64,000 nt of DNA, from NCBI RefSeq assembly GCF_014303395.1, contig NZ_CP060298.1:2995001-3059000 (forward strand), in the 5' to 3' direction. The notes under the pieces were generated by a model that saw only the letters and a program-made list of their open reading frames with translations, did no database searches and was not told the DNA's origin. Source of the DNA: Nakamurella sp. PAMC28650 (lineage in GTDB: Bacteria; Actinomycetota; Actinomycetes; Mycobacteriales; Nakamurellaceae). The position numbers and the translations under genes were made by a program. Of this stretch, positions 43,006 through 47,708 are shown in pieces (the stretch's first letter is position 1; every line of letters begins with the position of its first letter).

Positions 43006-44349
43006 ATGCGTAGAACCTTCTTCCGATCGCTGATTTCGTTGACGGCAGCAGTCGTGCTGACCTGGGCGGGCTTCAGCCATGCGGCGGCGTCGGCGTCGCC
43101 GGCGCGGCCGGCGGTCGCGGAGAAGCCGGTCCCGGCAGTGGCGAACGTGGCGCCGGTGGCGGCCGCCGTCACCCAGGTCATCGCCGCAGCTGCCAGCATC
43201 GACGTGGGAGTCGCGACCAGCTCGGCGATGGCCGCCCCGACGTCGGCCGCCGCGACCGCTCCTGCCGCGACCGCGCCTGCCGCGACCGCTCCTGCCGCGA
43301 CCGCGCCTGCCGCGACCGCTCCTGCCGCGACGGCTCCTGCCGCGACGGCTCCTGCCGCGACGGCTCCTGCCGCGACCGCTCCTGCCGCGACGGCTCCTGC
43401 CGCGACGGCTCCTGCCGCGACGGCGCCCGTCACGACGGCGCCCGCCACGACGGCGGCGGTCACAAGCCCGGCTGGTGCGGCATCTCCGCAGATCAGCTAC
43501 GCCCACCTCAGATTCGGTCTCGGTACCCCCGGGGGTTTCTACGATGACTCCGAGCTGCCCCCGGTCGAGTCTGCGGTCGGCGAGGTGCCGTCGGTGATCC
43601 TGGCCTACAGCGACTTCACGCAGGGGGCACCGATCGCCGGACTCGACGCCGTCACCAGCCGGGGCCAGACGCCCCTGCTCACCTGGGAGCCGTGGCAGGC
43701 GGGCAGTGCCGATCAGCCGAACTACTCACTGGGCCACATCATCTCGGGCGATTACGACACCTACATCAGGTCCTGGGCGAGCGACCTGAAGAGCTGGGGG
43801 AAGCCCGTGATGCTGCGCTTCGCTCACGAGATGAACGGCAACTGGTACCCCTGGTCCGAGCAGGTCAACGGGAACCAGCCGGGCCAGTACGTCGCGGCCT
43901 GGCGTCACGTGCACGACATCTTCACCAGGATGGGCGATCACAACGTCTCCTGGGTGTGGAGTCCGAACGTCGTGTACGACGGCTCGATCGCGCTGCACGA
44001 GCTGTACCCGGGTCCGGGCTATGTCGACGTGGTGGCGATGGACGGCTACAACTGGGGCACCACCCATTCCGACTCGGTCTGGACGAGCCCGGCCGATCTG
44101 TTCGGCTCGACGCTCTCACAGGTACGGAGGATCGCACCCGGTCTCCCGATCATCATCGGTGAAACCGCTTCGGCCGAGTCCGGTGGTTCCAAGGCGGACT
44201 GGATCACAACCCTGTTCTCCTACCTGACGTCCCAGCCGGACGTCACCGCCGTGGTCTGGTTCGACTACAACAAGGAAGCGGACTGGCGGATCAACAGCTC
44301 GGACGCCTCGGTTGCGGCTTTCAAGGCAGCGCTGTCCTCCCGGAGCTAG
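43006..44349 (+). CDS. Secreted GH26-like beta-glycanase
   Basis: 447 residues. Signal peptide (MRRTFFRSLISLTAAVVLTW, cleavage near ASA), an Ala/Thr/Pro linker made of about 12 ATAPA pentapeptides (residues ~82-145), then a GH26-type TIM barrel: acid/base Glu275 in RFAHEMNGNWYPW and nucleophile Glu386 in IIIGETAS. GH26 enzymes cut beta-mannan or mixed glucan. The linker probably spaces the catalytic domain from the cell surface. No polysaccharide locus adjacent. Confidence 0.87.
   Translation: MRRTFFRSLISLTAAVVLTWAGFSHAAASASPARPAVAEKPVPAVANVAPVAAAVTQVIAAAASIDVGVATSSAMAAPTSAAATAPAATAPAATAPAATAPAATAPAATAPAATAPAATAPAATAPAATAPAATAPAATAPVTTAPATTAAVTSPAGAASPQISYAHLRFGLGTPGGFYDDSELPPVESAVGEVPSVILAYSDFTQGAPIAGLDAVTSRGQTPLLTWEPWQAGSADQPNYSLGHIISGDYDTYIRSWASDLKSWGKPVMLRFAHEMNGNWYPWSEQVNGNQPGQYVAAWRHVHDIFTRMGDHNVSWVWSPNVVYDGSIALHELYPGPGYVDVVAMDGYNWGTTHSDSVWTSPADLFGSTLSQVRRIAPGLPIIIGETASAESGGSKADWITTLFSYLTSQPDVTAVVWFDYNKEADWRINSSDASVAAFKAALSSRS
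43261..43425 (+). repeat. 15-bp in-frame tandem repeat (ATAPA linker)
   Basis: Eleven contiguous units of CCTGCCGCGAC(C/G)GC(T/G) encode P-A-A-T-A. Only the third positions of two codons vary, so copies are kept nearly identical. A likely site of length variation between strains. Confidence 0.9.
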
Positions 44350-44380: not shown

Positions 44381-44848
44381 CTACCTGAGAACGGGGCCGG
44401 CCACCAGCAGTGCAAGCCCGGTCATGCCTCCGACCACGCGCAGGAGGTGGAAGGAGACCCATCGGTCGCGAAGCCGCTGCCAGTCCGCCGGCATCGTCGC
44501 CACTGTCCAGGCACGGATCTGCGTGACGATCGGTACCTCCACGAACGCTGTCACCAGCAGGGTCATCAGGAACAGTGCGAAGCCGAACAGCGTGGGGTAG
44601 AACGTCTCCGGCCGGGATCGGTAGGAATTGACCAGTACCGCGATCATCGACGCCAGGGCCACGGGCATCAGGACCCCCATCACCGATCCGAGATTGCGGT
44701 CCATCCGCTGCACGAGAGCCAGTAAAACGGTCGGCGAGAAGCTGTTCATCGAGCGACTCACGGCCAGCCATGGCCCCCAGAACACCCCGGCCACCAGTGC
44801 GGCCAGCAGGATGCTGGCCAGGTCCAGAATGCGACCTGTGATCGTCAT
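44381..44848 (-). CDS. DUF1772 (anthrone-oxygenase-like) membrane protein
   Basis: 155 residues, four helices with the DUF1772 pattern (GVFWGPWLAVSRSMNSFSP; NLGSVMGVLMPVALASMIAV). Some relatives are anthrone oxygenases, most are uncharacterised. Its promoter is the second copy of the operator module found in front of the HTH gene. An 8-codon frame (ATG 44871) ends in ATGA overlap with this start. Confidence 0.75.
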   Translation of the reverse strand: MTITGRILDLASILLAALVAGVFWGPWLAVSRSMNSFSPTVLLALVQRMDRNLGSVMGVLMPVALASMIAVLVNSYRSRPETFYPTLFGFALFLMTLLVTAFVEVPIVTQIRAWTVATMPADWQRLRDRWVSFHLLRVVGGMTGLALLVAGPVLR

Positions 44849-44875
44849 CGGTCAGTGCGGTTCGTCGGCATCCAG

Positions 44876-44906
44876 GCAACCTAAGTTGCTCATTCGACTT
44901 TGTCAA
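44876..44906 (-). promoter_or_regulatory. Operator-promoter module of the DUF1772 gene
   Basis: On the minus strand, -35 TTGACA (44906-44901), 17-bp spacer, -10 TAGGTT (44883-44878). The -10 lies inside the palindrome GCAACCTAAGTTGC (44876-44889), which differs at one base from the perfect palindrome upstream of the HTH gene. An ATG lies 6 nt after the -10. Confidence 0.75.
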
Positions 44907-45400
44907 CGTGTGTTGCTTGTCCTGGCCTGCATCTGTCCCAGGCGAGCGACGAGCGCGGGTCGGTCGACCCCGACGATCGCCAGCGCGCGCGGCACGGTAC
45001 CGATGTCGGCCCGGAGAATGCCGACCAGGACGTCGATCTCGGGGAAGCGCCGACGTAGGCCGTGGGTCGGGGAACGATGTTCCCTTGCTCTTGCTGCCAC
45101 GACGGAGGCACCCCAGGTCGGCTTCCTGGTCCGCGGGGTAGCGGTCAGGTCCTGGGCGTCGATGGGGGTGACGCCGGCGGTGGCCAGGCTCAGCAGGCGT
45201 TCCTGGCGGAGGGCGGCCACCAGCGCCCCGTGCGGGAGGCCCGCTTCGAGCAGGACGACCCCGAGATCGCCGGCGGGGTCGGCGGTCAACGCCAGCAGGA
45301 CGTGCTCGGCCTCCACCGTGGCGCTGCCGCGTCGAACGGCCTCTGCGACGCACCTCCGGACGAGCCCGCGCATGCCACGGGTCAACCAGTCGTCATCCAT
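44903..45400 (-). CDS. Clp N-terminal domain protein
   Basis: 165 residues. A Clp_N-type double repeat: VEAEHVLLALTADPAGDLGV and the second half FPEIDVLVGILRADIGTVPR, as in the N-domain of ClpA/ClpB/ClpC, but with no ATPase domain. Stand-alone Clp_N proteins in actinobacteria are thought to be adaptors or redox sensors. Start overlaps the HTH gene by 8 bp, so they form one unit. Confidence 0.85.
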   Translation of the reverse strand: MDDDWLTRGMRGLVRRCVAEAVRRGSATVEAEHVLLALTADPAGDLGVVLLEAGLPHGALVAALRQERLLSLATAGVTPIDAQDLTATPRTRKPTWGASVVAARAREHRSPTHGLRRRFPEIDVLVGILRADIGTVPRALAIVGVDRPALVARLGQMQARTSNTR

Positions 45401-45629
45401 GGCGCCTCCTCAATTCGATCCCGGCCTCGACCAGGCGGTGCAGGTGCTTCTTGTGCACGGCCTGGCGTGTGACACCCAGGGCCTGGGCCACCTCCGTCCA
45501 CGACCAGCCCTCGCGCATGGCCTGCTCGACACCGGCATCCTCCATGCGGTCGGCCAGTTCTCGGAGCGCGACGACGGCGGCCAGTCGATCGGCCGGGCCC
45601 CCGGTATGGGCTGGCGGGGGCGAGGGCAT
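45393..45629 (-). CDS. Small HTH regulator paired with Clp_N protein
   Basis: 78 residues. HTH WSWTEVAQALGVTRQAVHKK occupies residues ~42-61; the N-terminal half is a helix (ALRELADRMEDAGVEQAM). The start ATG lies 6 nt after a -10 embedded in a perfect 14-bp palindrome, so it probably binds its own promoter as well as the DUF1772 promoter. The HTH/Clp_N pair recurs in actinobacteria. Confidence 0.8.
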   Translation of the reverse strand: MPSPPPAHTGGPADRLAAVVALRELADRMEDAGVEQAMREGWSWTEVAQALGVTRQAVHKKHLHRLVEAGIELRRRHG

Positions 45630-45633
45630 ACAG

Positions 45634-45664
45634 GCAACCTAGGTTGCTCCCGGTGTCCGGTCAA
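45634..45664 (-). promoter_or_regulatory. Operator-promoter module of the HTH/Clp_N pair
   Basis: Minus strand: -35 TTGACC (45664-45659), 17-bp spacer, -10 TAGGTT (45641-45636). The -10 is part of the perfect palindrome GCAACCTAGGTTGC (45634-45647). ATG 45629 begins 6 nt after the -10, leaderless. Confidence 0.8.
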
Positions 45665-45753
45665 ACCGTGGTCGGGACACCGGGTGCGAAGAGTGTCCGG
45701 TTTTCGAGGCGGGCGTCAGGACGCCGCGGGTGCGAACCATCTCTGGACACCGG
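45649..45753. repeat. Inverted repeats CCCGGTGTCC/GGACACCGGG
   Basis: CCCGGTGTCC (45649-45658) pairs exactly with GGACACCGGG (45675-45684); further half-sites are GTGTCCGG (45693-45700) and GGACACCGG (45745-45753). A separate dyad GGCGTC-AG-GACGCC lies at 45712-45725. They fill the divergent HTH/ABC region and may be operators for the ABC operon. Confidence 0.6.
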
Positions 45754-45807
45754 ATGTTCATCTTCTGATCCCTTGAACGGGTCGCGGTCATTGCGTTACC
45801 TGTAGTC

Positions 45808-46815
45808 GTGAGGTCTTCCGGGGGTACCGCTGTGCACGCCATCAGACCGGCAGTGGAGACGGCACCGCCCGATCCGGTCCTGGTGTTGTCCGGACTGTCC
45901 AAACGTTTCGGAGCAAGGGTGGCGGTGGACGATGTCTCGCTGACCGTTCACCGGGGGCGTATCCACGGCCTGCTCGGGCCGAACGGGGCCGGCAAGACGA
46001 CCACGCTCCGCATGGTGCTCGGCGTGGTCCGGCCCGACCTGGGCACCATCGAGCTGGACGGTCGCGCCCTGACCCCCGACGTCCCCCGCGGCCGTTGTGG
46101 CATCGCCGGTTTCGTGGAGACACCGAACTTCTACCCCTATCTCAGCGCGAGCCGCAACCTGGAACTGCTGTCGGCGTGGGACGGGCCGATGGCTCATCGC
46201 AAGGTCGAGGAACTGCTGGAACGCGTGGGTCTGGCCGACCGGGCCCACAGCAGGGTCCGCGGCTTCTCCACCGGAATGCGGCAACGCCTCGGACTGGCCG
46301 CGGCGCTGATCAGCGACCCGCAGGTCCTGGTCGTCGACGAACCCACCACCGGGCTGGATCCGGCCGGCATCAGGGACCTGCACGCGCTGCTGACGCAGTT
46401 GGCGGCAGCCGGCCACACCATCGTGTTGTCCAGCCACGACCTGGCCGAGGTCGACCAGCTGTGTACGGACGTGTCCGTGCTGCGGTCCGGTGCGGTGGTC
46501 TACGACGGCACCATGACCGCGCTCCGCGACCGGGCTCCGGCACACGCCTGGCGGCTGCGCACCTCGGACGACGAGCGTGCCGCCGAATTGGCGACCGGGC
46601 AGGCGCAGCTGAGCGTCCACCCGGGATCGGGTGCGCTGATGGTCGCTGCGGGGACCGCGGAACTGGACGACTACGTCATCGCTCTTGCTGCCGCCGGGGT
46701 GGCCGTCCGTGAGTTGCGCCGCGAGGATCTACCGTTCGAATCGCTGTTCTTCCAACTGACCGAACCTGCCTCCGACCCCCCGCAACCGCTGCTGTCCGGG
46801 CGGTCCGACCAGTGA
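45808..46815 (+). CDS. ABC transporter ATP-binding protein
   Basis: 335 residues from GTG 45808. Walker A GPNGAGKT (~66), signature FSTGMRQRLGLAAAL, Walker B VLVVDEPTTGLDP, H-loop SSHDLAEVD. Bcr/DrrA-type exporter ATPase with a C-terminal regulatory tail. Stop overlaps the permease start (GTGA); first gene of a three-gene operon. Confidence 0.92.
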   Translation: MRSSGGTAVHAIRPAVETAPPDPVLVLSGLSKRFGARVAVDDVSLTVHRGRIHGLLGPNGAGKTTTLRMVLGVVRPDLGTIELDGRALTPDVPRGRCGIAGFVETPNFYPYLSASRNLELLSAWDGPMAHRKVEELLERVGLADRAHSRVRGFSTGMRQRLGLAAALISDPQVLVVDEPTTGLDPAGIRDLHALLTQLAAAGHTIVLSSHDLAEVDQLCTDVSVLRSGAVVYDGTMTALRDRAPAHAWRLRTSDDERAAELATGQAQLSVHPGSGALMVAAGTAELDDYVIALAAAGVAVRELRREDLPFESLFFQLTEPASDPPQPLLSGRSDQ

Positions 46816-47708
46816 CCGAGAACCTGCTGGTTCCCATAGGTTCCAGGACGGGGGAGCGCTCCGGCCCTGCGGAGCAACGGGACCGGATCAAGCATCCGCT
46901 GTGGCTCACGTATCAGTGGGAGCTGGAGAAATTGACCGCGCAGTTCCGCACCAGGCTCGCCCTGGTGCTCGCCCTGCTGGGACCTGCACTGTTCGCCGTG
47001 GGCCTGAAGTTCGCCACCGACGTACCGGCAGACACGTTGTTCGGCCGCTGGGTGACCGACTCCGGGTACGCGGTCCCGCTGGTGGTACTGGGTTTCGCGG
47101 GTTCGTGGGGGTTTCCGCTGCTGGTCTGCCTGATCGCCGGGGATATCTTCTCCGCCGAGGACCACTACCGCACCTGGACCTCCCTGCTCACCCGTTCGGT
47201 AGGCCGCCGCAGTGTGTTCGGAGGCAAAGTCCTTGCTGCGGCCACCTACTCGGTTCTGATCGTCGTGCTGCTGACCGTGAGCAGCGTGCTGTCCGGTCTG
47301 CTGCTGGTCGGGCGTCAGCCGTTGGTCGGGCTGTCGGGCAATCTGCTGGGCTCCTCGCAGGCCGCCTTGCTGGTGCTGTCGGGTTGGGCGTCGGTGCTGC
47401 CTGCGGTCCTCTCGTTCGCGGCGTTGGGTGTGCTGGTGTCGGTGGCCACCCGCAACAGCCTGGCCGGGATCCTGGTGCCCACCGTGCTGGGACTGCTGCT
47501 GCAGTTGCTCCTGCTGGTCGGCGGGGTGATGGACGGCGTCCGGGCGTTCCTGCCGGGGGCCTCCTTCGTGGCCTGGGTCGGCTTGTTCGCCGCCCCGTCC
47601 TTCGTTCGGCCGATGCTGATCGGCGTCGGTTGCTCGCTGGTCTACGGCGCGCTCTTCCTCATGGTGGCGTGGACGCTCTTCCGGCGCCGGGACGTGACCG
47701 GTGCCTGA
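46812..47708 (+). CDS. ABC-2 type permease
   Basis: 298 residues from GTG 46812, overlapping the ATPase stop. Six helices (RTRLALVLALLGPALFAVGL first; last near residues 275-290), with the acidic EDHYRTWTSLLTRSVGRR loop common in ABC-2 permeases after helix 2. Partner of the ATPase. The end overlaps the lipoprotein start (GTG 47701). Confidence 0.87.
   Translation: MTENLLVPIGSRTGERSGPAEQRDRIKHPLWLTYQWELEKLTAQFRTRLALVLALLGPALFAVGLKFATDVPADTLFGRWVTDSGYAVPLVVLGFAGSWGFPLLVCLIAGDIFSAEDHYRTWTSLLTRSVGRRSVFGGKVLAAATYSVLIVVLLTVSSVLSGLLLVGRQPLVGLSGNLLGSSQAALLVLSGWASVLPAVLSFAALGVLVSVATRNSLAGILVPTVLGLLLQLLLLVGGVMDGVRAFLPGASFVAWVGLFAAPSFVRPMLIGVGCSLVYGALFLMVAWTLFRRRDVTGA

What the first reader, a model, noticed from the sequence alone, without database searches (positions are those of the whole stretch)
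44381..45664. HTH/Clp_N/DUF1772 regulon with duplicated promoter-operator module
Both promoters have -35 TTGAC(C/A), a 17-bp spacer and the same TAGGTT -10 embedded in GCAACCTAGGTTGC or its one-base variant, and both have an ATG 6 nt after the -10. This is a precise two-promoter regulon around a stand-alone Clp N-domain protein whose job is unknown; a Clp adaptor controlling a repressor, perhaps by proteolysis, is possible.
Basis: partly seen in the sequence, partly recalled or inferred. Interest (0 to 1): 0.7.

Follow-up and report, generated by a model that had tools for sequence, protein, structure and literature searches.

The report
Split ClpC2-like repressor with tandem operators
Two neighbouring genes look like the separated halves of ClpC2, a known antibiotic-sensing repressor of mycobacteria, and the same DNA switch sits in front of them and of a nearby membrane-protein gene; the gene pair with this switch recurs in many actinobacteria, so it looks like a widespread chemical sensor whose trigger is still unknown.

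Summary
In detail: an HTH gene, an overlapping Clp_N gene and a DUF1772 gene, with the stated boxes at both promoters. This tandem operator occurs in 97 of 298 genomes of the order, the reversed control in 3. Of 152 sites examined, 123 precede an HTH gene like this one, and 105 of those 123 continue into Clp_N. HTH plus Clp_N is ClpC2, the cyclomarin-sensing autorepressor, in two pieces: the HTH profiles match, and fused ClpC2 genes have the same tandem layout with n5 spacers. Variant operators go with variant recognition helices, so the HTH probably reads the operator; this genome has one such HTH. In the window's branch the switch is mostly followed by ABC ATPase, beta-lactamase-fold or DUF998 genes. 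Best reading: a ligand-responsive repressor switch with Clp_N as sensor and DUF1772 as output. Binding, ligand and output role are inferred; the cyclomarin-contact residues are lost, and the DUF1772 link is seen in this genome only. Proteolytic control is not supported.

The parts
45393..45629 (-). HTH gene, 78 aa, proposed operator-reading repressor subunit; start 6 nt after the -10 (leaderless by sequence)
   Evidence: PF13384 E 3.5e-6; profile match to ClpC2 N-terminal part 97.8% over 48 columns; AlphaFold pLDDT 89.5, helices 12-39, 44-51, 55-68; only family member in the genome at E<=1e-6
44903..45400 (-). Clp_N gene, 165 aa, proposed sensor subunit; start overlaps the HTH stop by 8 nt
   Evidence: PF02861 E 1.6e-7; AlphaFold pLDDT 91.3, eight helices as in a two-repeat Clp N-domain; best PDB folds are ClpC N-domains, 5gui TMq 0.68, E 6e-4
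44381..44848 (-). DUF1772/PF08592 membrane-type protein gene, 155 aa, proposed output gene
   Evidence: PF08592 E 2.1e-7, over cut-off
45634..45647 (.). proximal operator of the HTH promoter, GCAACCTAGGTTGC, contains the -10
45659..45664 (-). -35 TTGACC of the HTH promoter
45636..45641 (-). -10 TAGGTT of the HTH promoter
44876..44889 (.). proximal operator of the DUF1772 promoter, GCAACTTAGGTTGC on the minus strand, contains the -10
44904..44915 (.). distal operator of the DUF1772 promoter, CAACACACGTTG on the minus strand, overlaps the -35 and the Clp_N stop codon; dyad centres 27 bp apart
44901..44906 (-). -35 TTGACA of the DUF1772 promoter
44878..44883 (-). -10 TAGGTT of the DUF1772 promoter
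44845..44871 (-). 8-codon mini-ORF (MPTNRTDR) whose stop overlaps the DUF1772 ATG (ATGA), possibly coupling translation
   Evidence: direct reading

Best explanation
This is a split ClpC2: a sensor-repressor whose DNA reader (HTH) and sensor (ClpC-type N-domain) are two translationally coupled proteins. The HTH dimer binds CAAC-n4-GTTG dyads that coincide with the promoter boxes, so binding excludes RNA polymerase. It represses its own operon at one proximal site and the DUF1772 gene at two sites. The Clp_N partner binds the HTH protein and lets go, or pulls it off DNA, when its groove is occupied by a ligand such as a toxic natural product or an unfolded peptide. That yields more Clp_N (sensor and possible sponge) and the output membrane protein. 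Shown by sequence: gene pair, operators, promoter overlap, recurrence across genomes, co-variation of operator with recognition helix. Inferred: repression, HTH-Clp_N contact, ligand release, role of DUF1772.
For: Tandem dyads in 97 of 298 genomes of the order against 3 of 298 reversed controls (a few of these sites, as in G192, G263 and G267, look unrelated by sequence), and in 20 of 396 of the phylum, this genome included, with no reversed match in the listed rows. 123 of 152 sites lie before an HTH ORF, 116 of the 123 with the start 4-6 nt downstream; 105 of 123 continue into Clp_N. In loci found through the Clp_N protein and not the operator, 7 of 9 distinct split pairs have an n4 dyad at the HTH start. 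ClpC2 homology: HTH profile 97.8%; fused ClpC2, 28 of 30 fetched loci parsed: n5 dyads in 26, in tandem in 23, n4 in 0. Specificity: with CAAC operators residue 57 is A in 113 and G in 9 of 123 rows (1 gap), never S/T. With CAG half-sites it is S or T in L017, L019, L264, L284, L285 and, in a differently built protein, L287; L272, with CAAA dyads, has K60 changed to H. One HTH of the family in this genome.
Against: No binding, repression or HTH-Clp_N contact has been measured. Of 30 DUF1772-homologue loci fetched (of 46 matches), only this window's has an n4 dyad; n5-type dyads, one each or two in L179, occur in five others and look unrelated, so the DUF1772 link rests on one genome. The window Clp_N has lost the cyclomarin-contact residues F2, F80, E89, so its ligand differs or is absent. 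In ClpC2, mutating two arginines in the Clp_N half reduced DNA binding (PMC10030653 section 11), so Clp_N may also touch DNA. Only 2 of the 16 other same-genus genomes sampled have a detectable homologue of this Clp_N. The HTH model has no PDB match at E<=0.001. In the blind search for CAG operators 3 of 6 genomes with a hit gave no HTH of the family. L017 and L019 differ from the CAAC set at residue 60 too, L264, L284 and L285 at residue 54, so the code is not one residue.
Confidence: 0.72

Rival explanations
1. Clp adaptor / proteolysis: Clp_N carries the HTH repressor to, or shields it from, the ClpC-ClpP protease, so that proteolysis sets the repressor level.
For: The Clp_N fold matches ClpC N-domains, including complexes with the adaptor MecA. 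The genome has a ClpC-type protein (843-aa frame with two Clp_N matches).
Against: The protein resembles the chaperone's own N-domain, not an adaptor that binds it. ClpC2, the fused relative, is released by ligand. Nothing seen here points to degradation.
Confidence: 0.1
2. Sponge: the main job of the pair is to make Clp_N in excess so that it soaks up ClpC1-targeting toxins; DUF1772 control is incidental.
For: Shown for ClpC2 (PMC10030653 abstract and passages). Most split Clp_N keep F2 (71), F80 (66) and E89 (69) of 107 rows.
Against: The window protein has D, W and A there. In its own branch 10 of 11 loci have a further gene after Clp_N, which a pure sponge would not need.
Confidence: 0.12
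3. Toxin-antitoxin-like pair: the HTH resembles RelI, an antitoxin related to the ClpC2 HTH, and Clp_N would be its partner.
For: The best PDB sequence match of the HTH is RelI 9sdc, E 0.002. PMC13284704 (passages) suggests that RelI-type antitoxins emerged from ClpC2.
Against: No toxin family among the five neighbouring proteins scanned. Clp_N is a peptide/ligand-binding fold. For RelI no inverted repeats were found upstream, while here the dyads recur.
Confidence: 0.04
4. The palindromes are only a shared promoter motif with no regulator.
For: The proximal dyads contain the -10 and the distal one overlaps the -35, so promoter constraint alone explains some bases. The 14-mer itself is not over-represented against its reversed control.
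Against: The CAAC arms lie partly outside the boxes yet recur. In L264 and L272 both arms of both dyads differ from CAAC/GTTG symmetrically, together with HTH residues. Reversed controls of the tandem form are near zero.
Confidence: 0.02

Closest known systems
ClpC2 (Rv2667 and actinobacterial orthologues), cyclomarin-sensing autorepressor
   Same: Homologous HTH followed by a ClpC-type N-domain; CAAC/GTTG dyads, often two, over the -35 and -10; start codon next to the operator, leaderless (PMC10030653 passages; own loci L206-L235)
   Different: Two overlapping genes instead of one; spacer n4 instead of n5; cyclomarin-contact residues lost; a second target gene, DUF1772, with its own operator pair
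RelI antitoxin (Rv2664) and other ClpC2-related HTH proteins
   Same: Related HTH (9sdc, E 0.002)
   Different: Partner is a RelE-like toxin; no inverted repeats found upstream (PMC13284704 passages)
One-component drug-responsive repressors of the TetR/MarR type (recalled as a functional class, from no call)
   Same: Repressor proposed to be released by a small molecule, next to exporter and enzyme genes
   Different: HTH and sensor are separate proteins and the sensor is a Clp N-domain

Membership tests
ClpC2 | N-terminal HTH homologous to that of ClpC2 | tested here: met
   hhalign 97.8%, E 7e-13 for the single pair, 48 columns; phmmer to 8ada E 0.012
ClpC2 | ClpC1-type N-domain as the other half | tested here: met
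   PF02861 31.8 bits over 20.7 cut-off; fold match to ClpC N-domains
ClpC2 | both halves in one polypeptide | tested here: not met
   Two ORFs, 78 and 165 aa, overlapping by 8 nt
ClpC2 | cyclomarin-contact residues F2, F80, E89 (ClpC1 numbering) | tested here: not met
   D, W, A in the window protein by alignment
ClpC2 | operator CGTCAAC-n5-GTTGACG just before a leaderless start | tested here: not met
   Same CAAC/GTTG half-sites and position, but n4 spacer and GCAAC/GTTGC flanks at the proximal sites; fused genes have n5 in 26 of 28
ClpC2 | autorepression released by ligand | not testable with these tools
   needs bench work
split HTH/Clp_N family (defined here) | CAAC-n4-GTTG dyad before an HTH gene followed at once by Clp_N | tested here: met
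   window; 105 of 123 HTH sites elsewhere
PF08592 (DUF1772, anthrone oxygenase) | Pfam cut-off | tested here: met
   31.5 bits against 27.3
RelI-type antitoxin | adjacent RelE/BrnT-like toxin gene | tested here: not met
   Scanned neighbours are Clp_N, DUF1772, GH26 and ABC transporter

The most novel reading that the evidence does not exclude
A large, mostly undescribed class of two-protein chemical sensors in which a Clp N-domain, freed from the protease, serves as an evolvable ligand receptor for an HTH repressor with a readable operator code. In the window's branch it has left cyclomarin-like ligands and moved to other toxic compounds, with exporters, hydrolases, monooxygenases, DUF998 and DUF1772 membrane proteins as outputs. 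In this reading the DNA reader of ClpC2 itself is its N-terminal HTH, whose recognition helix lies just beyond the end of the crystallised fragment, and not the Clp_N helix proposed in print.
Probability: 0.4. Interest if true: 0.8.

Novelty: new variant of a known kind. Interest (0 to 1): 0.6.

Why it matters
ClpC2 is studied because it blunts drugs aimed at ClpC1. The split family shows the same two-part logic in many actinobacteria and some alphaproteobacteria, with reader and sensor in separate proteins, and it offers an operator code from which targets could be predicted. It makes a direct prediction about which part of ClpC2 reads DNA. It also gives DUF1772 and DUF998 proteins, whose functions are open, a testable context: outputs of a toxin-sensing switch.

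Tried and rejected
Structure search with the HTH model gave no match at E<=0.001, only loose HTH hits. Phmmer of the window Clp_N against PDB sequences found nothing at E<=0.01; the fold comparison did. TTGAC-N17/18-TAGGTTG gives 2 hits against 1 reversed control and is weak on its own. DUF1772 homologues of the order (46 matches in 39 of 298 genomes) were checked in the 30 fetched loci: only the window's has an n4 dyad; n5-type dyads occur in L178, L179 (two), L185, L202 and L203. Those of L179 lie before the gene but 49 bp apart inside GCAAC..GTTGCGATATTG repeats and are taken as another regulator's sites. The divergent ABC operon (45808-47708) was considered as a further target; its likely promoter by direct reading (TTGAAC 45773-45778, TTACCT 45796-45801, GTG 45808) does not overlap the dyad, and its ATPase is 36% identical to the third genes of L080 and L138, so it was left out.

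Of the 29 sites without an HTH hit, two are the window's own DUF1772 site (L055, L056); three lie at the edge of a fetched stretch with HTH-like starts (L107, L113, L148); L060 and L167 have an HTH gene with a more distant start; ten are named in the report as other targets, by Pfam or by eye, or were considered as such (L073, L079, L110, L117, L127, L139, L142, L161, L168, L175; L117 is 82 nt from its gene and doubtful); the other twelve, in eleven loci (L061, L067, L081, L094 twice, L098, L111, L131, L143, L153, L156, L174), look like chance or other systems. Counts were not de-duplicated: L041 and L057 have the same match in a contig of equal length and are probably one genome. The third-gene rule found a further ORF in 52 of 96 pairs, many of which look spurious; for the window's branch it found 7 of 11, three more (L084, L108, L076) were read, and for L166 none was found. 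G066, a same-genus genome, has two tandem sites, one of them about 300 nt from a weak HTH match; not resolved.

Paper searches listed no paper that I recognised as describing the split gene pair; the library holds only openly licensed PMC papers and most listed papers were not opened, so this is not proof of absence.

Full report
WHAT IS THERE. The window is 64 kb of a single-contig 5.63-Mb actinobacterial genome (the kin of the order are seen). On the minus strand lie, in order, an HTH gene (45629-45393, 78 aa), a Clp_N gene (45400-44903, 165 aa, overlapping the HTH stop by 8 nt) and a DUF1772/PF08592 gene (44848-44381, 155 aa). Correction: the ATG six bases after the second -10 opens an 8-codon ORF that ends in an ATGA overlap with the DUF1772 start. 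Addition: the DUF1772 promoter has a second dyad, CAAC-ACAC-GTTG, over its -35, with centres 27 bp from the first. The HTH promoter has only the proximal dyad; its distal place matches 5 of 8 arm bases.

IS IT MORE THAN CHANCE. The exact palindrome and its one-base variant are two of three places in the genome within one mismatch; at two mismatches the pattern gives 6 places and its reversed control 24, so rarity alone is no argument. The tandem form CAAC-n4-GTTG, 14-17 nt, CAAC-n4-GTTG is: it occurs once in this genome, at DUF1772, and in 97 of 298 genomes of the order, against 3 of 298 (G004, G150, G212) for the pattern read backwards. A few of the 97 have sites that look unrelated by sequence. 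A phylum-wide sample with a slightly stricter pattern gave 20 of 396, this genome included, and no reversed match in the listed rows.

WHAT THE OPERATOR MARKS. Together with the loci L025-L056 this made 152 sites, not de-duplicated. At 123 of them an HTH ORF of this family starts downstream, 116 of these with the start 4-6 nt after the second dyad, 82 at exactly 5 nt. In 105 of the 123 the next gene is Clp_N, 42 of these with a 4-nt overlap. As a check free of the operator, the Clp_N protein search of 200 genomes (13 with a match) gave 13 loci besides the window's. Nine distinct split pairs could be read among them, and 7 of the 9 have an n4 dyad at the HTH start; of the other four loci two had neither gene, one was a fused ClpC2 and one was a second match in the same gene pair. 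Members also occur in Devosia, Ensifer and Shinella, which are alphaproteobacteria.

THE CLPC2 LINK. ClpC2 has an N-terminal part that dimerises and a C-terminal part like the ClpC1 N-domain that binds cyclomarin. It represses its own leaderless gene through CGTCAAC-n5-GTTGACG sites, often two, over -35 and -10, and cyclomarin releases it (PMC10030653: abstract, passages and section 11). The profile of the split HTH proteins matches the N-terminus of fused ClpC2 at 97.8% over 48 columns. Of 30 fetched ClpC2 loci 28 could be parsed; 26 have n5 dyads, 23 in tandem, and none has n4. So split and fused forms share protein parts, promoter layout and half-sites and differ by one spacer base. In a midpoint-rooted tree of 109 concatenated pairs the 14 fused proteins form one clade (support 1.0). 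The window pairs with L138, Leifsonia sp. Root227 (0.997), inside a 12-member clade (0.957). That placement, and a detectable homologue in only 2 of 16 other same-genus genomes, suggest horizontal transfer.

WHICH PROTEIN READS THE DNA. The published ClpC2 model puts DNA recognition on a Clp_N helix with R185 and R189. The sequence evidence favours the N-terminal HTH. (a) The crystallised fragment 8ADA ends at V72, the turn of the HTH, so the recognition helix is missing from it (alignment; residues 4-72). R57, whose change raised clpC2 expression 4.6-fold against 2.0-fold for the arginine pair, lies just before that HTH; the authors explain it by dimerisation. PMC13284704 (passages) also notes an HTH region in ClpC2. 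(b) Fifteen HTH loci, six Arthrobacter or Pseudarthrobacter, eight Microbacteriaceae and one Acidimicrobiales, have the operator but no Clp_N in the fetched stretch; in six of the eight Microbacteriaceae the next gene looks like an ABC exporter (L130 by Pfam, five by eye). They were found through the operator, and Clp_N elsewhere in those genomes was not excluded. (c) Operator and recognition helix co-vary. Among 123 rows with CAAC operators residue 57 is A (113), G (9) or a gap (1), never S or T. Paralogues with CAG half-sites have S (L017, L019, L264). A blind search of 397 genomes for CAG tandem operators hit six: two lead to HTH genes with T at 57 (L284, L285), one to a differently built protein with S (L287), and three to no HTH of the family. 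Residues 54 or 60 change as well in several of these. L272, with CAAA dyads, has H at 60. In L264 and L272 both arms of both dyads differ symmetrically. The window genome has exactly one HTH of this family at E<=1e-6, the window gene, so it is the only candidate of its family for the two sites.

WHAT THE SWITCH CONTROLS ELSEWHERE. In the window's own branch (11 of the 96 pairs with enough sequence), 10 have a further gene on the same strand after Clp_N: 7 by the rule, 3 read. By Pfam these are ABC ATPases in five (L138 with a DrrA-type C-terminus, L136, L171, L080, L076), beta-lactamase fold in three (L152, L141, L084), an NAD-epimerase type protein (L122) and DUF998 (L108). Distances reach about 200 nt, so not all need be one operon. 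Tandem operators with no HTH in the fetched stretch also stand before DUF998 genes (L073, L110, L161), alpha/beta hydrolases (L079, L175; L127 alike by eye), an aromatic-ring FAD hydroxylase (L168; L139 alike by eye) and a beta-lactamase-fold gene (L142). Eight genomes holding such sites could be searched (L079's was not held); all eight encode strong HTH family members. Of the 12 strongest of those HTH loci, 11 have Clp_N next door (not found for L255), 10 have at least one exact CAAC-n4-GTTG dyad and 2 the variant dyads named above. These outputs suggest handling of toxic compounds; that is inference from family names.

THE SENSOR. The window Clp_N is predicted as a complete two-repeat N-domain (pLDDT 91.3), nearest to ClpC N-domains. 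Across 107 relatives (split pairs plus one fused) the cyclomarin-contact positions are F2 in 71, F80 in 66 and E89 in 69; the window has D, W and A. Its ligand is therefore probably not cyclomarin-like.

MECHANISM AND CERTAINTY. I hold that the HTH represses both promoters by covering their boxes (about 85%), that Clp_N is its bound sensor (about 60%), and that DUF1772 is an output of the switch (about 70%, resting on this one genome). Proteolytic control is possible but has no support beyond the domain name. The result is a new variant of a known kind: ClpC2 in two pieces, with an enlarged regulon.

Noticed in passing
window 45808-47708 (+): An ABC exporter operon (ATPase PF00005 and a permease-like gene) runs divergently from the HTH gene; ABC ATPases are the third gene of the switch in five relatives, but here the operator does not overlap its likely promoter.
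   Followed up: partly
window 45646-45658 and 45675-45687: A 13-nt inverted repeat (GCTCCCGGTGTCC / GGACACCGGGTGC) flanks the -35 of the HTH promoter, with further GTGTCCGGT and GGACACCGG copies up to 45756; perhaps a second regulator's sites.
   Followed up: no
window 43006-44349 (+): A GH26-type glycosidase gene with a long ATAPA repeat linker.
   Followed up: no
L067:2215-2505 and L098 near 915-955: In records titled Proteobacteria and Burkholderia the same tandem-dyad pattern stands 4 nt before a small RelE/HigB-looking gene, perhaps convergent toxin-antitoxin autoregulation (family by eye only).
   Followed up: no
L160 (Trebonia kvetii), site on minus strand: A 317-aa protein with an HTH of this type and, by eye, a methyltransferase-like rest starts 6 nt after tandem dyads.
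   Followed up: no
L023:985-1944: A Clp_N gene extended to about 320 aa with what looks like a START/polyketide-cyclase type domain; 9 of 105 partner proteins exceed 310 aa.
   Followed up: no
L007:1081-1695 (genome C1 near 2063918): A second stand-alone Clp_N protein of this genome that keeps the F2 and PFTP positions by eye; a possible sponge.
   Followed up: no
L069, L077, L097, L133: HTH/Clp_N pairs with the operator in alphaproteobacteria (titles), pointing to horizontal spread of the whole switch.
   Followed up: partly
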